A stretch of DNA of 64,000 bases from Spinacia oleracea (Eukaryota; Streptophyta; Magnoliopsida; Caryophyllales; Amaranthaceae), in NCBI RefSeq assembly GCF_020520425.1, contig NC_079490.1, positions 3,410,001-3,474,000 of the forward strand. Reading direction: 5' to 3'. This document shows positions 4,166-43,000 of the stretch, piece after piece. The stretch's first letter is position 1; each line of letters starts with the position of its first letter. The translations under genes and the position numbers were made by a program. The notes under the pieces were generated by a model. It did not search any database. It saw nothing but the letters and a program-made list of their open reading frames with translations, and had not been told where the DNA came from.

Positions 4166-5733
4166 TTAAGAATGTTGGGAAATTCCTTCGTACTGGTCAA
4201 AGGTGACACCAACGAAAGCCATGTAGTCATCAAAGTTCCTTATTTCAGCGGCTGCTGAAGCACCAGTGTCGCTATCCCAATAACGACTTATATTACCCGA
4301 TGCAGCTACTTTTTCTGAAATTACCTCAAACGGTATTTTTTCGATCCTGTCTAGAGTCCCAGCTTCCACGTACACCTACAAATCAAACATGATATTTTAT
4401 GTACCAATGTCTCATAAAGAGTCGTAACTAAAGATATGATTATTATTATTTTCTACCCCATCCGTCTCTTTTTGTTCTTTACGTTTTTCTTTTTGGGTAT
4501 TTTAAAATATTCTTTACATTTTCTTTTATATTATCACATAAATGACTTAGTATTCTATCAAAATTTGTGTCCAATTATTATTTTAACCAATTAAATTTAT
4601 TAAGTCATTTAATATTTCACACTTTTTCATTGTGACGTTAAATTTTTCTCATTTCCCAATATCAGAATTTTGATAAAAGTGAAAACATTATAAATAAACG
4701 TAATTTTTCTTGTCTAAATAAAAAAAAATTGAGGAATCTCGATGCAAATTAATTAATCGTTAAAACGCGTGAAAAATACCAAACGTAAAAAACAAAAAGA
4801 GATGGAGGGAATATTACTTATTGATATGATCATTATTATTTCCTACTTATTGATCTGATTAATTTAGAAGCTAGATAAAGTGTGGAAAAATAAGTTCTTG
4901 AAGAATAAAGTTTGACCAAGTAAAATTTATCTAGATATGTAATGAAAAATAAGTGATGGTGTATCAAGAAATATGTTAAGTTTTTCGGTAAGTTTAGTTA
5001 CGTTCAAATAAGATAAATTCAGAAAACATAAGTAAAAATCAGCAGGTGAATAGAACACATCCTAAATCATATTGTTTGTCTGCCTTGGTCTTGTTCTGTT
5101 CACCTTATTTCCACTTATTTCAAGAAAAATAAGATCAGATAGGTTCAGTTAAGTTTAGATAAGTTTAGATAAGATAAGTTCAGGAAAAATAAGGGTTGGC
5201 CAAGTTCAATTTATAACTAAAATAAGTTTTGATAAGTTCTATTAAGTTCAGATAAGATAAATTCAGGAAAAATAAGTGGAGATCAGGTGAATAGAACGCA
5301 ACCTTAATGTAGGGTGCATTTTAAGTACCTTGTTAATTTTATCGACCTTGTTGAAAGCCAAGAGCCATCCAAGTTGTTGAGTATTTGACTCTTTAAGGGA
5401 ACAATAGATTAAGTCACCGTTGCACTTGTTCACATTGGCCTTATATGCAAACGCACCAATACCATTTGCATTAATATTTTGTGGAGGTAAATCTACGAAA
5501 GATCCTTGCCAAATACTGTAACCATAAAATTTGATTTGTTTAGGGAAGAGATTCTTCACAACACCAGTTACTAAAACCCTCTCATCTGCTTTTGAATTGT
5601 TGTTGTTGTTGTTGTTGTTGTCTTTTCTTGTTAGGAAAGACAACTCTGCCTCCTTCATTGCCTCTTCGATAGCTGCTTTCTCCTTGTCGGATAATTGGTT
5701 CATAACATGATCAGCTTGTTGCACGGACGCCAT
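4166..5733 (-). CDS. 23-kDa jasmonate-induced-protein-like protein
   Basis: Two coding exons, 5733-5329 (135 codons, ends KINK before a GTACTT donor) and 4375-4166 (acceptor TTTGTAG, starts VYVEAG), join in phase 0 to give 204 residues. That is close to the usual length of the jasmonate-induced 23-kDa (JIP23-like) family. Family-like features are a WQGSF...PPQ.(N/A)NG.GAF core and a C-terminal block with RYWDSDTGASAAAEI. An eight-residue Asn run (AAC/GTT microsatellite near 5595-5625) follows residue 37. The family is stress- and jasmonate-responsive, and its biochemical role is unknown. A leader exon and TATA box lie about 1.5 kb upstream. I see no frame damage. Family assignment is from recalled motifs, not a search. 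Confidence 0.72.
4456..4810. mobile_element. Stowaway-like MITE in JIP-like intron
   Basis: Ends are CCCCATCCGTCTCTTTTTG and the complementary CAAAAAGAGATGGAGGGA, with TA at both flanks (the right flank is slightly offset). It lies in the intron between the two coding exons. The copy-2 intron (15373-15897) lacks it, so it inserted after the duplication or was lost there. Confidence 0.8.
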
Positions 5734-5934
5734 TGTTACCTTTAAAAGAAAACGTAACGGGCATTACAAATTAAACACATACTATCCCCGTTTCATAATG
5801 ATCTTTACAGTTACTATTTGCATAAATATTAAGAAAAAGTAGAAAATTTGGTTGAATATATAATAATATATGGATAAAGTAAGAGAAATGTGTAAAAAAG
5901 TGGGTGGGTATAAGAAAAAAAATAAAAAGAACAT

Positions 5935-21216: not shown

Positions 21217-21519
21217 TGTTACGAACTTTGGAAAGCTTCGATTTTCTCTCTCTTACTTTTTCTGTGTGTAATTTCAAATTTTGAATTATATCTGAACTCT
21301 GAAAGGGGGAATCGTGTTCTGGAAGATTGGAAGTGTTATATGACGTGGGATTTGGGCTTGATATTAGCCTAAATTATTTGGGCTTGTTTTCAGCCCAAAT
21401 TATTTGGCATGGATATACAACAATACAGCCCAAACGTGACATATGGTTAAACATTACTTTCAAGTTCCAATGTTTGTTTTTAGTTGACACGTTTTTACTT
21501 TTGAAATCATTATATTGTA

Positions 21520-21780
21520 CTCCTTCCGTCCATTAATACTCGCACCGTTTTGACTGGACACGTTTGCCAATGCACTACTTTGACCATCAATATATTTAAA
21601 TTCATATTAAAAAATAATATAAAAATATTAATATTTTGAAAATATATATTAAGATGAAGCCCAACAATATATTATATACTAATATTTGTTTTCATATAAT
21701 AGAAATAAAATAGGATCAAAGTGAATTATGTGAATAGTGCAAAAAGTCAAAACGGTGCGAGTATTAAGGGACACAGGGAG
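21520..21780. mobile_element. Stowaway-like MITE
   Basis: CTCCTTCCGTCCATTAATAC at the left and the complementary GTATTAAGGGACACAGGGAG at the right, with TA flanks. Subterminal TCGCACCGTTTTGAC is mirrored by GTCAAAACGGTGCGA. Same family as 39074-39332. Confidence 0.87.
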
Positions 21781-21782
21781 TA

Positions 21783-22236: not shown

Positions 22237-22598
22237 TAAAGATGGTTGTGGGCCGGGCCGGGCCGAAGCCCGACCCGACCCGGCACGAGCACGCAAAAAG
22301 CACGGCCCGGCACGGGCACGAAGTCGTGGGCCGGGCCTGGGTCTTACTTTTTTGGAAAAAGCACGACAAGGCACGGCACGACTCGACCCGGCACGACAAA
22401 GCACGTTAAATTTAGTCAAATTAGCCTTAGGCACGACGGGCCGGCACGAAAGTACGTGGGCTTGGGCCGGGCCTGGGCTTTATTTTTAACTTTTCGGCCC
22501 GGCACGACACGGCACGAAACGTGGGCCCGGCAAGGTTAGGCCCACGACCCATGGGCCCGGCACAAAGCACGGCCCGGCCCGACCCACAGCCATCTTTA
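22237..22598. mobile_element. GC-rich inverted-repeat element, hAT-like
   Basis: The left end TAAAGATGGTTGTGGGCCGG and the complementary right end GACCCACAGCCATCTTTA form a terminal inverted repeat. The interior is dense in GGGCCGGGCC and CGGCACGA words, contrasting with the AT-rich surroundings. No target duplication is visible. Open frames here are base-composition artefacts. Confidence 0.6.
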
Positions 22599-23121: not shown

Positions 23122-23449
23122 TCAACGAGGCCCAGACAAAAGCGACTCTGTAGGACGGACTGAATATTCGTAATCTGCCATTGCCACCACTGGAGCTGGT
23201 TCATGAGCCATGGTTAAGTAGGTAAAATCAGTTAAAGCTTCCATGTTCGGAAGATCTTGTAAAACTTTCACCACCATTGACATAGTAGGCCTAATGAAGT
23301 GAGGTTGCAAGCACCATATCGCGATCTTCATCATCTTCACCACTTCTGCCTTGTGTTGTTGCATATCTTCACTATGCTCATCAATTAGGTCATAGAGTTG
23401 ATCCTCATCAGCCTTCAACTTCACCAAGTTAGTGAGACAATCACCTTCT

Positions 23450-23501
<52 letters not shown>

Positions 23502-25957
23502 AGTCTTAGTCCCAAAATGATTTGGGGTCGGCTAACATGAATTGACATAGGAGATCGCTAATGTAACCAATCACACAAGTCAGGAACGGGAAGTTAAAAG
23601 AATAAACAAGGAAGAGCGGAAAGTGAAAGTAAAATAAGATATAAATATATATATTACAGAAAAATATCATAAGGGAAAATAAGTAAGGTTTAAAACGAGA
23701 AAATTAAAATAAATATAATAAGTTTATTTGAAAATAGCATATAAAGGTGGGCTTTTAAAAATAAAATAAGACAATCACCTTCTAATGAGCCAAAATTCTT
23801 ACGACCACACACAATTTCTAGGACAACAACCCCAAAGCTATAGACATCAACCTTAACCGAGATGGCACGACCAGTAATCAACTCCGGAGCCATATATCCC
23901 GGTGTACCTCTTACCATGGTCATAACTTCACACTGACCTCGGTCTACCAGTTTTGCCAGACCAAAATCAGATATCTTGACATTGAAATCTTTGTCCAACA
24001 GTATATTCTGAGGTTTAATATCAAAGTGGATCACATTTTGCTTGCAGTGCTCGTGTAGATACTCAAGTCCTGCAGCCACACCGTCTATAATCTTTCGTTG
24101 TACGCTCCAGGTAAGTGTTTGTGGTATGTCTCTGTTGAAGATCCATTTCTCAAGGGAGCCATTACACATGTGTTCATAGACAAGAAGCCTGTTCAATCCG
24201 TCATCACAAAATCCAATCAATCTCACTAAATTGAAGTGGTGAAGGCTACCTATTGTATTGACCTCTGCAAGGAATTCTTTCCTCCCTTGGCCTAATGAGT
24301 CCAACCATTTCACTGCAACTTTTGTTCCATCACCTAATGTACCTTCAAAAACAGACCCAAACCCACCTCGACCAAGCTTGGTTTTGAAGTCTTGGGTTGC
24401 CAATTTCAGTGATTCAAAAGAAAACCGACTTACTGTTTCAACAAAAACATCAAGAGAACCATCAAATTCATTGTCACTACTCCTTCGTCTCCGTATCATC
24501 AACACATAACAGCATGCTCCAGTGACCAAAACTAAGCTAACCGAAATAGAAAGTACCAATTTTTTCTTCAACGTCGATTCTCTTTTTTGCACTTTGAGAA
24601 ATGCAGTGACCTTATAGCCCAAATTTCCTCGAGAAACATCCATCAAAGTGAGTATCTCTGAAGGTAGTGTACAATTACCAAATGAGGTATCATTATAGTA
24701 ACGAAAGAAGACAGCTTTGCATGAACAATTGTTTAAACATGCACTTTTACAACTCTCAACATTTGTTCCTATGAGAGAGGGAGTAGAGAGGAAGTAGGTA
24801 ACATTTTGAAGCTCTAGAAAATCGTGGAGTTTGTGGTTCCCGGAACAAGATAGAGGAGTTGAAAGGGTACATCCTGTATCGGCATCAAAGTTTTTACTTG
24901 GCTTGAAGTAATCCAAGCTACCATCATTACCCAGCGGACAACCACAACTTCCACCATTTGTGCAGACCCCATACTTTCCACAAGTAGTTGGGTATGAACA
25001 ATTCCCAAATTCATCATCCTGAACAACACTACCAAGGGAGGATTCCTTTTGATCCCAAGTATACCAACTTAGGTGTCCATTTTGATCAAGACGCATATAA
25101 CTATTATAATCATGAGTGTAACCATCATGGAATTCGGGTGATAAGGAATTATCGTACAGGTTGTTCAGGACTACATACTCTAGAAATATATATTCCTGTG
25201 GAGGGTTCAGATCAACAAAAGCTCTAAGACCATCATGTTCCCAAGAAACATAGAAGAACCCTGCAGAAAGTACGGTAGTTGATTCGCTAGATGTCAACCT
25301 CTGTCCCTCTACAAGATGCTGGCCATAAAGTAATGTATCAGTTGGATAATCATATGACTCCCAGATAGTTTTCCCATTTCCATTTAACAAGACCAAGTTC
25401 CCATCACGTTTCAAGTGAATGGAGCTCGCCGAATTGCCAGAGGTGTTGGTTGACCACACAAAACTTCCATCTGCATCTCTTAATACCAAACCTTCTTCGG
25501 ATGTAAGTTCCAGAGTAGCACCCTCTTGAACAGGATGATCTCGGTTGGCACACCAGACAACCACCATAGAAGAAGAACCACCATAATCCGAGGATCCAAT
25601 ATATATAGCAAGTAAGAATGAATAAGGTGCAGTTTGAAGAGCGAAAAGCCCAAATCCAAACGGAGGATAATGATCAGTACCTATCTCAATTCCAAACTTG
25701 TTATAATGATGATAAACATAGTCTGGAGAGTACAAGGCTGTTCTTACGATAAAATTATCATCAGAAAAATAGGTCCCTTCATTTATGAGCCAGTTGTTGT
25801 TTTTCGAAGAATTCGAGACATTTGCATATGAAGATTGGCTGTAAACAAGGATGATATTGTTGCTAGAAAGAAAGTAGCACCAAATACATACAAGAATCTT
25901 GAACATACCTAATACCCAATTTACTCCAGTATCTTTCAACATGACCTGAAATGTCAT
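23122..25957 (-). CDS. G-type lectin S-receptor-like Ser/Thr kinase (SD2-type), with retroposon in the kinase exon
   Basis: The protein reads signal peptide (hydrophobic MFKILVCIWCYFL...; Met at 25906 may be the real start), bulb-lectin domain (VVVWCANRDHP...GNLVLLNGNGKTIWESYDYPTDTLL), Cys-rich and PAN-like region (CKSACLNNCSCKAVFF), one transmembrane helix (LVLSISVSLVLVTGACCYVL), then a kinase. The kinase has GRGGFGSVFEG, VAVKWL, HFDIKPQN, DFGLAK and GTPGYMAPE. HFD replaces HRD, as known for SD2-5-like and LRK10-like kinases. These are plasma-membrane receptors in defence and stress signalling. A 318-bp (GTT)n-tailed insertion at 23451-23768 splits the kinase C-lobe. Unspliced, the frame stops at 23690. 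If introns are drawn from 23778 to 23448, the product is about 834 residues with one extra Glu. Confidence 0.82.
23435..23784 (-). mobile_element. (GTT)n-tailed retroposon (Au-SINE-like 3' end) in a coding exon
   Basis: A 16-bp direct repeat AGACAATCACCTTCTA (23435-23450 and 23769-23784) is host coding sequence and marks the target duplication. On the minus strand the insert ends TAGCCGACCCCAAATCATTT...GACTAAGACTTTG and (TTG)n, the style of plant Au-type SINE 3' ends. The 5' part lacks clear polymerase III boxes, so it may be 5'-truncated or a different partner sharing the tail. The insertion is in the sense orientation of the kinase gene. Confidence 0.85.
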
Positions 25958-26720
25958 CAGAAGTTAGTTAGTAACTTAGTACTTTATCTTTGACTCGCTT
26001 CATGAAAAATTAACATCCCAAAATACAATCAAAATCATGTTGACTTACTATTCGACGACTACAAAGACTTTGGAAGTAGTAGGAACTTGTGAACAGAAGT
26101 TCTAAAGTATGTAAGAAAACTATGTATACTTAAGAAATGAAGACGAGCTGTGAGAAAATGACAAGACACACAATTAATAGATGGTGTGACCCATTCAATA
26201 CATTGACTTCAAAGACTTTGATTTTTTTCTAACACCCCAATGTCCAGCCGCCAGCCCACCCACCCAATAGAGAAAGCAACTTCTGTGATGGCTCTGAACT
26301 TTTGTGGCCAATTTTAAATTCCTAAAGGAAAAATGGAAAAGTCAAACATGTTGCAATATGCAAAACTACATGCAGAACTACATAAAAAACTAACTAAATT
26401 TCTTTGATGGCTCATTTGTGAGTGAAACTTATCCCTTTTGTAATGATAATAGAATGTAATTTCTGTAATATGACACAATATTTTTCAAATATCCTTCATA
26501 ATAGTTGGATCATCGTGTACTATATCAATTGTACTATATGGTGTTCGTGTTTTTCTGGAGTAACTCACAGTTCAGTATGCAGTACTCGTATGTATTAACT
26601 TCAAAACCCTAGTTCTGTAGTGTTGCCGCCCAAATCCAACAGTCATGTTTATGTACAGCTTGCTAATCTAATTCTGACAGAAGAATCAACTAATGTTACA
26701 GATGATGAGGAACAGCTTAC
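25958..26720. other. Upstream region of the receptor kinase; first copy of a 250-bp repeat
   Basis: Presumed promoter and leader of the receptor kinase. An AG acceptor-like TTTCAG overlaps the upstream Met, so a leader intron is possible. Bases 26231-26482 match 26978-27224. Confidence 0.5.
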
Positions 26721-27224
26721 TCACTCTTCATCATAGTTTTCATCATCTCCTATTTGCTGATTGAAGTTTGCCAATTGAGTAGCATCGATTGCAATAGTTC
26801 CCATCTCAATGACAGACCACTCAGGGTATTCATCATGTGCCGTTTCTATAATAGACTCTGCTTCTGTATTATCAAGTCTCAGAGCTGAAGCTGTGGCAGC
26901 CTTGCCATCTGCATCAGAGTCCACATTCAGGTCAAAATTCCAGGCTGATGCCTCATCGTTCTCAACTGGTAAATGGTAACACCCCAAAGTCCAACCGCCA
27001 GCCCACCCAATAGAGTGAGCAACTTCTGTGATGTTTCTGAATTTTTGTGGCCAATTTTAACTTCCTACAGCAAAAATGGAAAAGTCAAATGTGTTGCAAC
27101 ATGCAAAACTACATGCAGAACATCATACAAAACTAACTATTTTCTTTGATGACTCATTTGTGAGTGAAACTTATCCCTATTGTAATGATAATAGAATGTA
27201 ATTTCTGTAATATGACACAATATT
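26231..27224. repeat. Direct repeat of about 250 bp flanking the NC2-alpha-like last exon
   Basis: Copies at 26231-26482 and 26978-27224 start AACACCCCAA and run to TAATATGACACAATATT at roughly 90 percent identity by eye. The second copy abuts the acceptor side of the exon at 26972. Confidence 0.85.
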
Positions 27225-30200
27225 GTAAGCATCATTGCCTGCATGTCATACATATCTGGATTATCTTCAAAGTTTCAGAATCCTCAACGCAGTTGCTTGA
27301 CTGCCTTTTCTCTACCCATACCCCTACTTTTCCTCGTCCTCTTCCTCCTTCTCTTCTACCGCTATTAGTATGCAAAGGTTAAAGAACAGAATAGTCAAAA
27401 GGCAGAAGTTTGGAACGGATTGGCTTCTGTGGCATGCTGGAAAAGCAACCATTCTAGTATTATTAGAAACATAATCCACATCTTTTTCTGACACACTCTC
27501 CCCATCACAATGTCTTGACAAAAACCAAAAAGAAAAGAAAGAACGGTATTCACGAATTAATTAACACAAGGTTCTCATTCACAAACCTAACATGGATCAC
27601 TCAACATCAAAACAATTTTCTGATCATAAACCATTGACATGACCAAGCAATATCAAACCGTAAATCAGGAAGGCATTCCTGATTGGCTCACTTTGTCAGA
27701 ATCAGGATTGCAACAGAGGAAGGACAACAATCTGTATTGGCTCGGGATCATTTTTACGTAAAATAGGGATAGTGTTATCTGTAATTGAGGTATCATAATT
27801 GAAGATCACATCATCACATACAATCTCTCACAACATTATAAGATTATTTTTTTTCTTTCTTTTGGGTTTGTTGGTTTTATGTATTAGTGCATCAAGAGTA
27901 GATTAGCTGTAAATCATAATACTACAATGTAAATACTTGAGATTTCACCCCTTTTAGTGAGTTAGAACATTTTTTTTGATAAATCTTAGCAAAACAAATT
28001 GGAGTAGGTCGAACCAATCCTAAGTGTCCTTCTGCCTAACCGGAATAGGGACCTCAATCCTGACAACCTTGATTCTTTTACTGATAAAATAACAGAACTT
28101 GAATTTATGAGAATAAATATTTTTGAAACAATAAAATTAGAAAGAGCTATACCAATTTGATCCTGTTGGATTCTTCACCACCCTCATCACCTTGATAATC
28201 TGCAAGTTTTCTGGTAGTGCAAACACATATATCAGCACAGAACATGTATACCTCAAGAATGAGAACAAAACAGAACTAACGTCCAAACCTTGATTTTGAA
28301 ATCTGTGGACCATCTTACTAGCAGCAGAGCTACCCAAGCCAGAAGCTCTACCAACAGTTCCTTTCAAAAAAAATCAAATACAGCGATGCGTCATACACAT
28401 TGTTTCCTGTAAAATAAGAGAATGGTTGTGTTTACTCAAGATGTGTTCTGCAATATATTATCAAGAAAAAAGACATTCAAAATTCAAGACAATAAGCCGT
28501 GCATTGTTCTTCTTCACTATCACTGCTTATTCAACTTCTGGACGGAAGCCCGGAAAGCCTAGTAAGTCACAATCAAATAGCACACTAAAACATACTACGA
28601 TAACCAAATGGTACAAATCTGCCAATACGAACCTGTCCTAGTAAAGGACTAGGCTAAGATGCAAAATCAAAATGAAGCATACAGAATCCAGCTCACATGA
28701 TACTGCTAGGAATTAGGTCAGTTGCGAGAAATTACCGAGGTTAGCAAGAGGAATTAGCAGTAACCAGATATGAAGTATTAATGATCAGTGTAATCAATCA
28801 ATACAACTCACCTTCTTTCGAGAGGAAGGCAACTCTCCAAGAGAATACTCTTCTTACTACAATTTTCTGAATGACTGACTACGCTATTCATCCCCCCTTA
28901 TAAAGAGATTCTACCCTTCCTGTGTAACAGAATTGTATTGGGATTATAACCCCTAACAAACTCAACAGACAATAGAGAAATACTAAAGTGCCCTTCCTGC
29001 CCTTCTAGACTTATTAGTTTAATTATTCTGCTGGCTGGCTTAATTATTCTGTTGCTTCCTTCCTCTTCTGCGTGCGTAGGTAAACCTGATGGGTGGCCTA
29101 TTTGGGTTCCTTGCAGTACATCCACCCAAACTTCCACCTTGTCCTCAAGGTGGAAAGAAGGAAAGCGAAGAATAAGAGCATCCCAGTCTTCCCACGTAGC
29201 TTCATAAGACGGGAGTTGCTGCCACTTAATCAAGACTTCCATCAACCCATCATTGTCCTTGCGCCGCACTCCCAGCACTGCTTCTGGTTCAACATCCATA
29301 ACCATATCAGAAGATAATTGAGCAGGGAGGGTGGTTGAGACTCTTGCACTACCCACAGCCTGTTTCAACTGAGAAATGTGAAAAACTGGGTGTATCTTGG
29401 TGTCAGTAGGCAAGAGTAGCCTATAAGCCACTGGTCCGACCTTTGCCAACACCTGAAATGGCCCATAAAACCTTGGTGAAAGTTTTTCATTCCGAGTTTT
29501 AGCCAATGATCTCTGTCTGTAAGGTTGTAACTTTAAGTACACCATGTCACCCACCTGAAAATGCCCGTCCCTTCTTTTCAGATCTTCATATTGTTTCATG
29601 TGATTCTGAGCACGGGATAAGTAGAACTGTAATTCATCTAGGATGGCATCACGTTCCCCCATCTGCTCCTCCAAAGAAGAGAGTGTGGTGCTACCAGATA
29701 CAAACCTTAGCAACTTAGGAGGGTCCCTGCCATACACTGCTCGAAAGGGTGTGCAATTTGTTGCGGTATGCCATGCAGTGTTGTAGTGGTATTCTGCCCA
29801 AGGTAGCCATTGAGACCACGTGCGAGGTTTCCCATTGATGAAACACCGTAAATAAGACTCCACCCCTTTATTGACCACCTCAGTCTGGCCATCGCTTTGA
29901 GGATGGTAAGCAGTGCTGCGGTTCAACTGAGTCCCCTGCAATCGGAAGAGCTCCTTCCAAAACAAGCTGATGAAAATTTTATCCCGGTCAGAAACAATGG
30001 ATGAAGGAAAACCATGAAGACGGACTATTTCTCTCACAAACACTTGGGCCACCTCATTAGCAGAAAAAGGGTGCTTGAGTAGAATGAAGTGGCCATACTT
30101 GGTCAGCCTATCTACGACTACCAAAATTGTGTCCCAACCACTGGACTTTGGTAATCCTTCGACGAAGTCCATTGACACATCTTCCCACACCTTGTCGGGA

Positions 30201-33200
30201 ATAGGAAGGGGCTGGAGAAGGCCCATAGGACTTAAAAGAAGAGGATTTTTGCTGTTGGCAGACAGAACAAGAGAGCACATACTTCGTGACATCCTTCCTT
30301 AAACCGGGCCAATACCACTCTGAAGATATTCTTTGGTAGGTCTTGTAGTCCCCTGAATGTCCCCCTATAGGAGAATCATGGTACTCCTTCAATATCCTTG
30401 CAGTGAGCTCTGAACCGCGCGGTAAAACAATCCGATCCTTGTATTTAAGGACACCATGGTCCACTGTGAACCACTTAGGAACAGTCTGACCTTGGCTGAT
30501 GGATGTTTTCAGTTGGTGCAGCCATGTGTCTTGCTCAATCTGTTGCTGAATGTACTCCCATGTAACCCCACACGTGCTGGATAGGGCGCAATATATGGCC
30601 GTAGCTGGAAACTCCCTGGAAAACGCATCAGCAACCTTGTTGGTGGCTCCAGGCTTATACTGTATGTCAAAGGAATAGCCTAAGAGCTTGCTCAACCAAC
30701 GTTGGTACTCTTGTCCCACCTCTCTTTGTTCAAGTAAATACTTCAAACTTTTTTGATCCGTTCGCACAACAAAGTGCCTCCCTAACAAAAAATGCCTCCA
30801 TTTCTGTATGGCTAAGACAATAGCCATTAACTCTTTCTCATAAATGGGCTTACTACGGGCCCGTTGCCCCAAAATTTTACTGAAGTACGCCACTGGATGC
30901 CCTTCTTGTAATAAGACAGCCCCTTAACCATGGCCTGATGCATCGGTTTCCAGAATAAAAATCTTCGTGAAATTGGGCATGGCTAGCACGGGGGTGTGGG
31001 TCATTGCCTATTTCAGTGATTCGAATGCCACAGTGGCTTCCTCTCCCCAACCAAAACTGTCTTTTTTCAATTGCTGTGTCAATGGTGCCGCTATTGATGC
31101 ATACCCTCTAATGAACTTTCGATAGTAACCAGTCAGACCCAAAAATCCCCTCAACTCCTTAAGGTTTGTTGGAATGGGCCATCCCAACATAGCCTGAATC
31201 TTGCTACTGTCAACTGCCACTCCATGCTCTGATATTACATGACCAAGGTATGCCACCTCCCTTTTACCGAATTCACATTTCTTAAAGTTGGCATATAAGT
31301 GTTGTTCCTGTAAAACCTGCAAGACTATACTCAAATGGGAAACATGAGTAGACAAATCAGGGCTGTAAATCAATATGTCATCGAAAAACACCAACACAAA
31401 CTTTCGGAGGTGAGGTTTAAAAATGTCATTCATAAGAGATTGAAAAGTGGCAGGGGCGTTGGTGAGTCCAAACGGCATTACAAGGAATTCATAATGCCCT
31501 TCGTGAGTTCGGAAAGCAGTTTTTGGAATGTCCTGGCTTCTCATTCGAATTTGATGATAACCAGATTTCAAGTCCAGCTTACTTAACACCCTAGACCCAT
31601 GTAATTCATCTAACAATTCATCAATAATAGGGATGGGGTATTTATCTGGTACGGTTACCTTGTTTAAAGCTCTATAGTCCACGCAGAAACGCCACGATCC
31701 ATCTTTTTTTTTTACCAAAAGGACTGGACTAGAGAACGGACTAGTGGAGGGTTGTATGATGCCCGCCTTCAACATGTCCTGTACCAATCCTTCAATCTCA
31801 TCTTTCTGACATTGGGGATATCGGTAAGGCCGCACACTTACCGGGTTGGTTCCCTCCTTGAGCACGATTGAATGCTCTATTGTTCTGTGCACAGGTAGTC
31901 CCACTGGCATGTCAAACACTGCTTGGAACTGGGCTACTGTTTCCCTCAAAGACGCGGGAATTTCTGTTTCTCCATGTATTTCATCAGTGCCTTCTGCCCA
32001 CCCTTCCAGATGGTTGAGCTCCAACAAATAACCACCACCTTCCTTTTGTAATGTCTTCAACATGGCTTTCAATGAAATACATGACCGACCCAGGGAAGGA
32101 TCACCCTTCAATGTCACCGTTTCCCCATTCAACTGGAATTTAAGAGTTTGCGTCTTCCAATTGGTGGTCATCGTCCCTAACTTCTCTAGTCATTGAATCC
32201 CTAAGATAATGTCAGAGTTTCCCAGAGGCAGTAGAAGAAAATCCTCAATGATCTGAACCCCTTGTAACACCAAGAGTATTCCTCGACATTCGCCATCGCC
32301 CTGCACAGCCTCGCCCGTGCCAAGAGATACGCCATATTTCTTCGTTGAAGTGACGAGCAGACCCAATTGAGTGGCTGCCCTAGTAGAGATAAAATTGTGC
32401 GTCGCTCCGGGGTCAATCATGACCACCACCTCGCCTCCATTTAATATGCCCTTCAACTTCATGGTTTTTGGGCTTGTAATACCCATTACTGAATTCAAAG
32501 AGATCAAGGGTTGTGGGAGACTAATTTGCTCATCCTCAGTCGTCTCCACCAGGTTCAACTCCTCGTCGCCCCCGAATTCTGTCTCATCTCCCTCGCCGTC
32601 GACAGTAAGCAACACACTCAACTCTCTTCTCCGGCAACGGTGGTTAGGCGCCCACTTATCATCGCACCTGAAACAAAGGCCTTTCTCTCTCTTCTGTTGG
32701 ACCTCTTTTTCGCTCAAACGCCTTATTTCTCCGGTGGGTTTTGCAATGGGTATGGTGGTAGAAGGTCGGTTGGTGGTTCTGTTTGTGGTGTTTAGGCTAA
32801 ACGGGTTATTTGAGTAGTTGTTTGTTTTTGTGGTGGAAAAGGATGGGGAAATGGATCCGGTTTTCCATGGGTTAGGGTTATATTTGGGTCCGGAATTGGT
32901 TTTCTTTTCAAGCCCAAATTTGAGCTTCTCTTCCACTTTGATGGACAAGTCCATCGCAGTATCCAGGGTTTGAGGCCCAAGAAGCCTCAATTCAGCTTTA
33001 ATGTCGTCTTTAAGGCCGTTAATGTACTGGCTTTTCGAGATTGCTTCTGGAATTCCCTCCAATGGCGCCATTAACTCAATGAATCGTCGGCGGTAATCCA
33101 GCACCCCCTCCGTCTGGCGGTGGGCGAGCCATTGTTCTTGCAACAAACCCGATCCACTGGGCCGGAATTGTCGAAGAAGGAGGCTCTTCAACTCTTCCCA

Positions 33201-34582
33201 CCGTGTTAGCGGCCGCCGGCGGTGCTCCCATTGATACAGCAGCAGCGCATCACCATCCAGTGCCACCACCGCCGCCTCCAACTTGTCTTCTTCTCCCAGT
33301 TGATAAAAATTGAAAAAACGTTCGGCTCTAAGTATCCACCCATCAGGATTTATCCCTTCAAACACCGGTAAGTCGAGCTTCTTCATTCTCCAGTTTGAAA
33401 GCCCGCCTTCAGAGTGGTCGGAGTGGTTCGCAGTTCCCTCCGTTTCTCCTTCCTGGCGCCGTGCGATTTCAGCCCGCAATTGCTCGGTGGTTTGTTCTAA
33501 CCCCCGACTAAACTGAGCTGCTAGTCGACTCTCCAGCGCTGCCATGGCTTGGGTGATCTCCTGCGCTATTCTGGAATTGAGCCCAGAAATTTCCGACTCC
33601 ATTTGCTCCAACCGCTGTGAGTTACTCGCCGGTGCCATTTCCCGTCACTGGATCGGAACAGCTCTGATACCAAAAATGCTAGGAATTAGGTCAGTTGCGA
33701 GAAATTACAGAGGTTAGCAAGAGGAATTAGCAGTAACCAGATATGAAGTATTAATGATCAGTGTAATCAATCAATACAACTCACCTTCTTTCGAGAGGAA
33801 GGCAACTCTCCAAGAGAATACTCTTCTTACTACAATTTTCTGAATGACTGACTACGCTATTCATCCCCCCTTATAAAGAGATTCTACCCTTCCTGTGTAA
33901 CAGAATTGTATTGGGATTATAACCCCTAACAAACTCAACAGACAATAGAGAAATACTAAAGTGCCCTTCCTGCCCTTCTAGACTTATTAGTTTAATTATT
34001 CTGCTGGCTGGCTTAATTATTCTGTTGCTTCCTTCCTCTTCTGCGTGCGTAGGTAAACCTGATGGGTGGCCTATTTGGGTTCCTTGCAGATACTTCGTGA
34101 AGGAACTTTTTATTAGCTGATCTTCATTTCCTTTTATTTAGATTTGATAATGGGAGACATTGAACATTACATCATATAACAGAAATCAAGCAAACCTATC
34201 AAGCAGTTTTATAATATCTTCACTTTTTCAAGAACTATTATTAAGGCTTATTCACAGAAGTGATGAACTGATTATCTTTTCCCTTCACGTCTTTCATATG
34301 TTTGATCACAGAGCTGTTCTGGAAATAGTTTACAGCTTTAGCTGCATAAAATATCAAGTAATACTTCAGTCATAGCACATAGTAGACTGGCACTGAAGTG
34401 CGCGAAAGTATAAATCTAAAATGGTAAAGAAGACACAGAACCATCTCAAAGGAAATCTAAACAGAATAGTATGATAATAATAGGTACACCAAGTACTTAT
34501 TAGACTCACAAACTATAAGAGGTACAGCAACGTGCATCCTTCTGACATCCTCATCAGATTGCATAATCTTTTTAATTCGAGA
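26721..34582 (-). pseudogene. NC2-alpha (Dr1-associated corepressor)-like gene in scattered exons
   Basis: Exon-like pieces in minus-strand order: 34582-34510 (acceptor CTGTAACAG, codes SRIKKIMQSDEDVRRMHVAV, donor GTGAGT), the start of an NC2-alpha/NF-YC-type histone fold; 34341 onward (acceptor TATGCAG, completes S then KAVNYFQ, weakly matching KALELF); 28360-28289; 28199-28153 (DYQGDEGGEESNRIKL); 26972-26721 (ASAWNFDLNVDSDADGKAA to ANFNQQIGDDENYDEE and stop), like the acidic tail of plant NC2-alpha. NC2-alpha pairs with Dr1 to repress TATA-binding protein in the nucleus. The rest of the histone fold was not found, a first exon is unclear, and the last two pieces do not join in phase. I therefore favour a decayed copy. 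A chromovirus lies between the second and third pieces. Confidence 0.5.
28704..34088 (-). mobile_element. Ty3/Gypsy chromovirus LTR retrotransposon (fossil)
   Basis: Two 412-bp LTRs (28704-29115 and 33677-34088, TG...CA) differ at about one visible position, so the insertion is young. A 5-bp target duplication GATAC flanks it (28699-28703, 34089-34093). Next to the right (5') LTR is a primer site TGGTATCAGAGC, complementary to initiator Met tRNA. Parts in element order: gag with a C-terminal zinc-knuckle-like stretch (about 33.6-32.6 kb), aspartic protease (about 32.5-32.2), reverse transcriptase (about 32.0-31.3), RNase H (about 30.9-30.6), integrase (about 30.4-29.5) and a chromodomain-like end (about 29.2-29.1). 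The short LTRs and 5.4-kb length suit the Reina group, though that is inference. Coding is broken, with roughly three breaks. Confidence 0.93.
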
Positions 34583-40057: not shown

Positions 40058-43000
40058 ATGGATGTCGTGCAGATGTTACAGAGGCAATTCATCGACTACA
40101 TGAACTCTTTGTACAGTGAGGTAAAATCCCAAATCAAATTCTGGGTTTTAGTCAATTATTTTTATTCATTTGAGTTTTTAATCTGAGTATTTTTAGGTCT
40201 AATTTTGTTTGTTTTTTTTGGTGATTTGGGCAGTATTATTTGGATGATCAGTTCAACCAATTGCAGAAATTAGCGGATGAGAGTAGCCCAGATTTTGTTA
40301 TTGAAGTTGTAACCCTTTTCTTTCAAGATTCTGAAAAGCTCCTTGAAAATCTGAGCAAAGCTCTGTGAGTTTATTTTTTCTGGGTATTTTTTTTTTCAAT
40401 TTTTGGTGGGTTTTTTTAAACTTTATTTTTGCTTAATTTATGTAATTATAAAATGGATATTTTTTTTGTTTTTACAGTGAGCAACCAGTTGTGGATTTCA
40501 ATCAAGTGGCAAATCATGCTCATCAGTTTAAGGGGAGTAGTTCTAGGTATTTCCTGTCTATTAATCTTGAACTTTGTACATTTCTAGGGTTCTATATTTT
40601 TTTTGGGCTTTGAATCTGTATTTTGAATCAAAATTGATCCAACTTTATTTGTTGTTGAATTAAAACTGATACAACTTCATTTTTTACTTGATCTTGTGTT
40701 TGATCTGCACATATGGAATAACTGTTTAATTTTGATGTCAAAATTTGTAATTCTGAGGGTTAATACAGCTTTTATCGCTTGCCCCGGGTTGGGGGGAGGA
40801 TTTTTTAAAATTAGCAGACTGTGATCGTATTTTTGCTGTATAGTTGAATTGTTTAAATTCCCATATTTGAGGGTGGTTTTCTTTGATGTATTTGGCAGCA
40901 TCGGTGCACATAGGGTCAAAAACCAATGCGTTAAGTTCCGAGCTTATTGCGAGGAGAAAAATCGTGAAGGGTAAGATGTCTACTAATATACTTAGACTCA
41001 TTTCCCCTCCCTCTTTTTGGTGTTTAAAATGTCATTTTTACTTTTATATTTTATCTAGGCGTAGTGTTTATATATATGTTCTTGGTATGGTATGTTTAGC
41101 AAATGTTCCACTCTTACGCTGATGTATAGAAAGTGTTACAAGGACTTCATTGTATCTTACTTCTATTCTGTCCTTTCTGACCTGATGTTGGTAGTTGGCT
41201 GACTGGATTAGGCGGGATAGACTGATCATCGCTTCCTTCAGCTGACATTTTGTTCTTCTTTCTCAATTAAGTGATTGTGATGCCTTAAATATTCAGTAAG
41301 AATACTTGTTAGATTTCTAGGGTTAGTCAGTTTTCCTCATCTCATATAGTTATCTTATCTTAAAAAATGCGTTGGTTCAATAACTTTTACTTCAAGAGAC
41401 ATGATCTAAAGTTGATTAAGATAAAAAGAAAACTTAGGCTGCTGATGGTTTCATCAACTGAGATGCTGGAATGAAGTATTTGGAAATGAGGATGATTTGT
41501 CGTTAACTTCACTCTACGAGATGTTAGGGTCTAGAGAGAACTTGTAATCAAGGGCGTAGCTATGGGGAAGGTAGGGGAAGCCGCCCCCACGAGATCAGGA
41601 AAAAGAAGTATATAGTTTTTCTTTCAACTTGTATACAGTGTAGTATGGCTCGGTGGTTGCGGATTGTTGAAAATAGTGCTCTGGAAGATGTACCCAACCT
41701 CCCATATTTGAATCCTAGTTGCCCCAACATTAATGATTTTTTTGTCTTTGTTTCTTATTAGTTATTACACTATTTTCTGTTTACACTCTCATTTTGTTTT
41801 TATTGTTTCTTCTTTTATCTTAAAATTTTAAAAAATCTTTAGCCAAAACATGTGTATAACATGCTTTTGAGTACATAACATATTTATCTTTTGGGGTAAA
41901 TGATGAATTAACCAAAATAGTAGAGTACAAGCTACACAGCATACAAACGAAAGAGGGGAACAATCCAAAGTTAACAGCCTTTCTAAGAAGGCCCTTAACC
42001 CCAAAAACTAAAATAATCACAACTCTAAAATATAGGATCTTACTGAATTCCAGTTTATTCAATTTCTCACATGTAGCTAGCCTTTTATGGGCAGTTACCT
42101 AGCTAATAAACACACACTTTGGAGGAGCCAGATTGTTACATATGAATTTGTTCCATGGTTCTTGTATACTTGCACCTCGAAGCCTGTTATACATCTGTTT
42201 TATAGAGAAATGATCATTATGCATGAGGTTGACAGCCTGTGGTGTTTGAGAAATGTAAACAACAGCTCCAAATACCTTTTTAATCATCCATGAAGCCTGA
42301 TTAGGGATAGGCATTTGAAGTACCGATTTTGTCTTCACATAGTAGGTATGGATCCATTTGATCCACATTTTGTCCTTCTTCATTTTGTCCGCCATTTACA
42401 CATAGTAAATGGCGGCTTGTCTCAACAAGCAGCCGGTCTGAATTCTCTAGTAGAAGATGTATTGGGCACTTTAGAAATTAAAGAAACATCTGTGCAATTT
42501 ACCGGCTCAGGCATCTTAATGTGAATGAAGAAGTCCTGCACTGCAATAGTTATGCTTGTTCCTATTCTGCCCCATGTCTTCTGAAAGAAATAAGCCATTA
42601 TAACTATCAATTCCAGAATGATGGTTCTATCTACCATTGGGAGTTCCAAGGCACCAGATCCTATTATTTCCCATAGAAGTCCATAACTTCATCCTTGATA
42701 AAATTATGAGAATTAAGCCTGGTTTCATCTTCTTTAATGAGAAGCGTAATTGCATTTTCCCCTTGTCTTTCTTCAGCGTATGCATGGAAGTAATTGGTTT
42801 TTGAATCACCCAATGGTATCCATTTCTGCCCTCGACTTCTGCTACCAAACTTTCTCCTCAGTATTGCTCCGTTTTCTCCAAATCAACGAGGAGTTGGTTT
42901 TCTCTGTCAGCTAATTGAAAGTTCTGGACATCTGTAGATAGGTTTCTTTGGGTTTTCTCTAGTTCAATTCTGATTCTCTGGATCCTCTACGCAATACCCT

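What the first reader, a model, noticed from the sequence alone, without database searches (positions are those of the whole stretch)
23435..23784. A retroposon in a receptor-kinase exon appears to have supplied its own intron borders
Seen: the kinase gene frame is broken by a (GTT)n-tailed insert flanked by a 16-bp copy of coding DNA. On the coding strand the first copy reads TAGAAG/GTGATT, giving an AG/GT donor. The second copy comes directly after (TTG)n and reads TTGTAG/AAGGTG, giving an acceptor behind a T-rich tract. Removing 23778-23448 (331 nt) restores the reading frame exactly, with one extra Glu codon. Inference: the target duplication itself turned the insertion into a removable intron, a way a gene could survive a retroposon in a conserved kinase domain. 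If splicing is incomplete, the same locus would also make a receptor truncated in the kinase C-lobe.
Basis: partly seen in the sequence, partly recalled or inferred. Interest (0 to 1): 0.78.

Follow-up and report, generated by a model that had tools for sequence, protein, structure and literature searches.

The report
Retroposon with intron-like borders in kinase
A plant receptor-kinase gene has a small piece of a jumping gene in its kinase region whose borders could let the cell cut it out as a new intron; the route is already described for other genes, and no RNA evidence was available to show that it happens here.

Summary
In detail: a G-type-lectin receptor kinase (minus strand) is interrupted by a sense-oriented, (TTG)17-tailed insert between identical 16-bp target copies. 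It lacks tRNA-type promoter boxes; its 3' repeat fits a 5'-truncated plant RTE-type LINE (PMC3747384). Retained, it stops the frame at 23692-23690; removing 331 nt gives the +Glu frame. Such restoration is automatic for any target duplication holding AGGT: 186 of 2,483 sites here. The donor matches 8 of 9 consensus positions (shared top of 215 GTs), rank 3-4 of 192 by U1 pairing (22-23 of 194 by a stricter score); the acceptor ranks 2 of 142 by T content. Against: no YTRAY branch motif within 130 nt of the acceptor, two better-pairing donors upstream, and the only AATAAA of the stretch lies in the insert. Without RNA or orthologues, splicing is plausible but unshown; a disrupted allele is almost as likely. 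The route is published (PMC3443670). A clear example of a known kind.

The parts
23779..25957 (-). 5' part of the receptor-kinase coding sequence: G-type lectin domain and most of the kinase domain, ending ..GRKNFGSLE; later in-frame ATGs are possible starts
   Evidence: Open frame; Pfam B_lectin 6.2e-19, PAN_2 1.2e-4, Pkinase 1.2e-48; S_locus_glycop 20.5 bits, below its curated cut-off of 24
23769..23784 (-). Target-site duplication, coding-upstream copy TAGAAGGTGATTGTCT; holds donor AAG|GTGATT
   Evidence: donor 8 of 9 consensus matches, shared top of 215 GTs; rank 3-4 of 192 by best-register U1 pairing, 22-23 of 194 by forced-register pairing
23777..23778 (-). Candidate 5' splice site (GT), phase 1
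23451..23768 (-). Retroposon body, 318 nt, sense to the host gene; best read as a 5'-truncated RTE-type LINE tail
   Evidence: No tRNA A/B boxes on either strand by simple patterns; 3' repeat (TTG)n as in plant RTE LINEs (7 of 7 families tabled end in (TTG)n or (TTGATG)n; PMC3747384); no other copy of the 23-nt tail in the window with up to 3 mismatches
23690..23692 (-). In-frame stop codon reached if the insert is retained
23723..23728 (-). AATAAA inside the insert, the only one on the coding strand from 25957 to 22800; possible premature poly(A) signal
23505..23527 (-). CCCCAAATCATTTTGGGACTAAG, hairpin-like string just before the (TTG)n
   Evidence: resemblance to plant RTE LINE / TS SINE tails is recalled, not aligned here
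23450..23501 (-). Perfect (TTG)17 tract, 3' end of the element and U-rich tract ahead of the acceptor
23435..23450 (-). Target-site duplication, coding-downstream copy; tandem acceptor TAG|AAG|G
23448..23450 (-). Acceptor TAG (331-nt intron, one extra Glu)
   Evidence: rank 2 of 142 AGs by T content of 20 preceding nt; rank 11 of 142 by pyrimidines
23445..23447 (-). Acceptor AAG (334-nt intron, exact empty site)
   Evidence: rank 3 of 142 by T content; rank 18 of 142 by pyrimidines
23122..23444 (-). 3' part of the coding sequence: end of the kinase C-lobe, tail and stop
   Evidence: With the exact join, 49 of the 60 PDB sequences listed (2,187 matched) align on to query residue 264 or beyond, 11 stop at 159-221; Pkinase match runs to profile position 255 of 263 (exact join) or 240 (+Glu join), against 199 with the insert retained

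Best explanation
A 5'-truncated, sense-oriented RTE-type LINE fragment inserted by target-primed reverse transcription into the coding sequence of a plant G-type-lectin (SD2-like) receptor kinase, at a site holding AGGT. The 16-bp target duplication left AAG|GTGATT in front of the insert and TAG|AAG|G behind it, and the element's own (TTG)n tail is a U-rich tract in front of that acceptor. Shown from sequence: the insertion, its borders, and the open frame after removal. Inferred: the LINE rather than SINE origin, and that the spliceosome removes the insert in at least part of the transcripts, mostly at TAG (+Glu) and less at AAG (exact). The other transcripts would retain it, or end within it, and would encode at most a receptor cut off between kinase helices F and G.
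For: 16/16 target repeat and pure (TTG)17 tail; open 834- or 833-codon frame after removal; donor 8 of 9 consensus, rank 3-4 of 192 by best-register U1 pairing; acceptor rank 2 of 142 by T content; 60-nt A+T windows rise from 0.48-0.62 just upstream (starts 23920-23830) to 0.77-0.83 in the first half of the insert (starts 23770-23650), a contrast that plant introns favour (recalled); the joined kinase domain aligns through its C-lobe with 49 of 60 listed PDB sequences, many of them redundant. Published precedent: AGGT-duplication introns, with 35 transposon-insertion cases tabled for Oryza, Drosophila, Oikopleura and Zea (PMC3443670, passages); an exonic retrotransposon spliced out in Arabidopsis (PMC12112155, passages).
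Against: No RNA evidence. No YTRAY branch motif nearer than 132 nt to the acceptor (132, 146, 256); only a non-consensus CTAAG at 58 nt. Two GTs in the upstream exon pair better with U1 (24366, 23914). A fixed-register U1 score puts the donor at 22-23 of 194. By pyrimidine content the acceptor ranks only 11 of 142. The insert holds the only AATAAA of the stretch examined. The A+T contrast falls to 0.57-0.65 in the insert's second half, and some upstream exon windows reach 0.67-0.70 (24040-24010). Joining the flanks adds only 2.3-2.8 bits to the kinase Pfam scores. A young disrupted allele would also still look intact on both sides.
Confidence: 0.5

Rival explanations
1. An ordinary gene-breaking retroposon insertion: the insert is retained or causes premature transcript ends, giving a null or C-lobe-truncated receptor allele. 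The splice-like borders are chance.
For: AGGT occurs at 186 of 2,483 possible 16-bp target sites of this coding sequence and some in-frame GT/AG pair at 459 of 2,483. 112 donor-acceptor pairs, from 57 donors and 9 acceptors, leave an open frame to the natural stop, so frame alone says little. Poor branch-point context; the only AATAAA is inside the insert. In PMC12112155 exonic ONSEN insertions more often gave TE-gene transcripts with altered starts or ends, although its abstract says most full-length genic insertions were spliced out (passages).
Against: Donor and acceptor are both near the top of most of their lists in this gene; both flanks stay open with no other break, though a recent insertion explains that too.
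Confidence: 0.44
2. An ancient, ordinary intron at this site, shared by orthologues, that happens to look like a retroposon.
For: GT..AG ends, A+T-rich first half, phase 1.
Against: A 16/16 direct repeat at the ends and a pure (TTG)17 tail are marks of a retroposon insertion; SD2-type kinases are usually intronless here (recalled). Orthologues could not be checked.
Confidence: 0.03
3. The insert is a TS-like SINE rather than a LINE fragment (this bears on its origin only; the splicing question is unchanged, so its odds are apart from the others).
For: Tobacco TS SINE and its RTE partner share about 100 bases of 3' end and both end in TTG repeats (PMC3747384, passages).
Against: No A or B box pattern on either strand; best B-box match has 4 mismatches; ARAGORN finds no tRNA in the window. 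A SINE that lost its head cannot be excluded.
Confidence: 0.2

Closest known systems
Transposon-insertion model of intron gain at AGGT (proto-splice) sites
   Same: Target duplication holding AGGT gives donor AG|GT and acceptor AG|G, and splicing leaves the coding sequence unaltered (PMC3443670, passages)
   Different: Here the favoured acceptor would be the TAG 3 nt earlier, adding one Glu; splicing is not shown
Introners
   Same: Some Introner families recruit both splice sites from the target duplication or insertion site, and some add codons (PMC9860276, passages)
   Different: Multi-copy intron-making families, most consistent with DNA transposition, not found in land plants in that survey; here a single copy of a retroposon
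Plant RTE-clade LINEs and tobacco TS SINE
   Same: 3' end in (TTG)n (PMC3747384, passages)
   Different: No reverse-transcriptase coding sequence and no tRNA-like head in this copy
Ds-derived intron in maize (Giroux 1994) and the rice catalase case (Iwamoto 1998)
   Same: A mobile element becomes an intron of a plant gene (what each paper shows is recalled)
   Different: Seen only as entries in the reference list of PMC3443670; the papers were not read

Membership tests
Non-LTR retroposon insertion (target-primed) | Target-site duplication of host DNA on both sides | tested here: met
   16/16 identical copies of coding DNA
Non-LTR retroposon insertion (target-primed) | 3'-terminal simple repeat next to one duplicate | tested here: met
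   (TTG)17.3, 100% matches, 23450-23501
Plant RTE-clade LINE | (TTG)n or (TTGATG)n 3' end | tested here: met
   against Table 3 of PMC3747384 as seen in passages
Plant RTE-clade LINE | RTE-clade reverse transcriptase upstream of the tail | tested here: inconclusive
   No room for it in this 318-nt copy, as expected of a 5'-truncated one; no genome copies could be examined
TS-like tRNA-derived SINE | tRNA-related 5' head with A and B boxes | tested here: not met
   both strands, pattern search; no tRNA
Transposon-derived intron at an AGGT site | AGGT inside the target duplication | tested here: met
   TAGAAGGTGATTGTCT
Transposon-derived intron at an AGGT site | Insert-free orthologue | not testable with these tools
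   No genome held for the window; plant genomes are not among the collections
Transposon-derived intron at an AGGT site | Removed from mature mRNA | not testable with these tools
   No RNA reads held
Introner | Several similar copies acting as introns in different genes | not testable with these tools
   Only the window could be searched: no second copy of the tail there
G-type lectin S-receptor-like kinase | B_lectin, PAN and kinase domains with catalytic motifs | tested here: met
   with S_locus_glycop below its cut-off; VAVK, HFD (non-RD), DFG and APE read by eye in the translation

The most novel reading that the evidence does not exclude
A plant LINE fragment became an in-frame phase-1 intron of a lectin receptor kinase as soon as it landed: its target duplication supplied both splice sites and its own (TTG)n tail the U-rich tract. 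The tandem TAGAAG acceptor and incomplete splicing would then yield three receptor forms (exact, +Glu, and truncated before kinase helix G).
Probability: 0.25. Interest if true: 0.45.

Novelty: new member of a known kind. Interest (0 to 1): 0.3.

Why it matters
If spliced, it would be a young case, caught with its target duplication intact, of intron gain by retroposon insertion in a land plant, where Introners were not found in the survey of PMC9860276 (passages). It would suggest that sense-oriented (TTG)n-tailed elements are predisposed to become introns when they hit AGGT, because the tail acts as a U-rich tract; that can be counted genome-wide. If not spliced, it is an ordinary disrupted receptor-kinase allele.

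Tried and rejected
Looked for the whole genome: not available. Looked for other copies of the tail: none in the window with up to 3 mismatches, no match of the 350-nt region in plasmids at E 0.1; one hit in bacterial genomes (L001, Fibrella), of which 141 bases were read: no (TTG)n follows the pattern, so it is judged a chance match; two viral-contig scans found nothing and one found a single match to a looser pattern of 18 specified bases (L002), not read and judged likely chance. A weak hit of the insert at 41726-41821 (64% over 101, E 0.003) is T-rich sequence (printed) and was set aside. Rfam: nothing at gathering scores. The insert's RNA fold is no better than shuffles (z 0.75). Papers: neither tail string tried was found in the held library. 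No report of a (TTG)n LINE-derived intron in a plant receptor kinase was seen in the listings (those of 32 and 40 showed 20 of 24 and 20 of 35 papers); this is no proof of absence. I first scored the donor in a forced register (rank 22-23 of 194), saw that this charged it for a lone end pair, and rescored with the best sub-register (rank 3-4 of 192); the rescoring was done after seeing the first result, and both are reported. My notebook checkpoint still carries the first rank. The AG that ranks first of 142 by T content (23752) lies only 27 nt after the donor and was not considered an acceptor. Dating by the 16/16 repeat is weak: at 9% divergence between copies 22% of such repeats would still be identical.

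Full report
What is there. The window is plant nuclear DNA by content (Ty3/gypsy-type retrotransposon, PPR gene, lectin receptor kinase, and my reading); the species is unknown. On the minus strand a long frame from about 25957 encodes a G-type-lectin receptor kinase: B_lectin, PAN_2 (22.6 bits against a cut-off of 21.1), a weak S_locus_glycop below its cut-off, and a kinase domain. The frame is broken at 23779 by an insert and reopens beyond it, ending at 23122 with a tail ..LSGPR, typical of SD2-5-like kinases (recalled).

The insert. Two 16/16 identical copies of coding DNA (23769-23784, 23435-23450) flank 318 nt, which end on the coding strand in a perfect (TTG)17 tract. An identical 16-mer pair in 700 bp is expected about 0.0002 times by chance. 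[quoted passage not shown] The insert has no A or B box pattern on either strand and no tRNA is found in the window, so a truncated RTE LINE tail is the best reading, without genome copies to prove it. That the string CCCCAAATCATTTTGGGACTAAG belongs to this tail family is recalled; two string searches of the held papers found nothing.

What the borders allow. On the coding strand the upstream copy reads TTAGAAG|GTGATT and the downstream copy (TTG)nTAG|AAG|GTGATT. Using TAG removes 331 nt and adds one Glu (834 codons); using AAG removes 334 nt and restores the empty site exactly (833 codons); retention stops the frame at 23692-23690 after 755 codons. For the heptamer TAGAAGG, Arabidopsis EST pooling predicts 81-83% use of the first AG, and 98.8 +/- 0.9% was measured in At1g76940 (PMC2375911, passages seen); so the +Glu form should dominate if splicing occurs.

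How surprising is it? If a target duplication contains AGGT, joining donor to acceptor removes exactly one insert plus one duplicate, so exact restoration is automatic. In the empty-site coding sequence 186 of 2,483 insertion sites have AGGT within a 16-bp duplication, and 459 of 2,483 have some in-frame GT/AG pair in the two copies. Across the real insert, 112 donor-acceptor pairs, from 57 donors and 9 acceptors tried at 60 nt or more, leave an open frame. All 2,483 simulated insertions of this insert break the frame if retained. The AGGT borders are thus a roughly 1-in-13 event, before the orientation needed for the U-rich tail.

Are the signals good? The donor AAG|GTGATT matches 8 of 9 consensus positions, shared best of 215 GTs in 25957-22800, and by best-register pairing to U1 ranks 3-4 of 192 in 25957-23122. 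A forced register ranks it 22-23 of 194. Two better-pairing GTs lie upstream at 24366 and 23914. The TAG acceptor ranks 2 of 142 AGs by T content in 20 preceding nt and 11 of 142 by pyrimidines. Against: YTRAY matches lie 132, 146 and 256 nt from the acceptor, with only a non-consensus CTAAG at 58 nt, farther than the usual few tens of nt (recalled). The A+T contrast is strong only in the first half of the insert (0.77-0.83, against 0.57-0.65 in the second half and 0.48-0.70 in upstream exon windows). The insert carries the only AATAAA on the coding strand from 25957 to 22800, at 23728, so premature ends are possible. If cleavage fell just upstream of 23692 the transcript would lack a stop codon (inference).

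What retention would do. With the exact join, the kinase domain was compared with PDB sequences: 2,187 distinct sequences matched; of the 60 listed, 49 align on to query residue 264 or beyond (many are IRAK4 constructs) and 11 stop at residue 159-221, ten of them close to the junction near residue 216. The Pfam Pkinase match runs to profile position 255 of 263 with the exact join, 240 with the +Glu join and 199 with the insert retained. The gain in score is only 2.3-2.8 bits over the two kinase models, so the downstream part is weakly conserved against those profiles; this is no strong evidence of continued selection. The break falls after ..LEIVCGRKNF, between kinase helices F and G (placement recalled). 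A retained-insert product would keep the extracellular domain and catalytic motifs but lack helices G to I, and is probably inactive (inference).

Known or new. PMC3443670 (passages) describes this route: a transposon landing in AGGT leaves AG|GT and AG|G, with 35 transposon-insertion events tabled from Oryza, Drosophila, Oikopleura and Zea, and no in vivo demonstration at that date. PMC9860276 (passages) describes Introners that take both sites from the target duplication or insertion site, and found none in land plants. PMC12112155 (passages) reports a full-length ONSEN in an Arabidopsis exon removed by splicing (the gene is named differently in its results and its discussion); its abstract says most full-length genic insertions were spliced out, while its discussion says exonic ones more often changed transcript starts or ends. 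The present case is a plausible new member of this kind with clear anatomy, but unproven.

Verdict. Observation confirmed; retroposon origin about 95% likely; at least partial splicing about 50%; spliced form the main isoform about 30% (my estimates, from no call). Interest 0.3.

Noticed in passing
window 23723-23728: The insert supplies the only AATAAA on the receptor gene's coding strand between 25957 and 22800, a possible premature polyadenylation signal about 30 nt before the in-frame stop.
   Followed up: partly
window 22237-22598: GC-rich repeat element of 362 bp with 29-nt, 93% complementary terminal inverted repeats and internal GGCACGA repeats, about 520 bp beyond the end of the kinase coding sequence.
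   Followed up: no
window 21518-21782: 265-bp element with 38-nt, 89% complementary terminal inverted repeats, Stowaway-like by recall.
   Followed up: no
window 26230-26482 and 26977-27224: A block of about 250 bp just upstream of the kinase gene is repeated about 743 bp further on (89-98% in the ungapped pieces); a 111-aa frame at 26721-27056, which overlaps the second copy, has no Pfam match.
   Followed up: partly
window 28898-33644: Ty3/gypsy-type element on the minus strand, split over several frames: gag, protease, SH3-like and chromo domains; integrase match below its cut-off. Frames 30108-30923 and 31008-32189, which look like RNase H and reverse transcriptase by eye, were not scanned.
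   Followed up: no
window 5597-5621: A second (TTG)n tract, 8.3 units; on the other strand it encodes a run of Asn in a 166-aa frame (5263-5763), and the retroposon tail string is not found there.
   Followed up: partly
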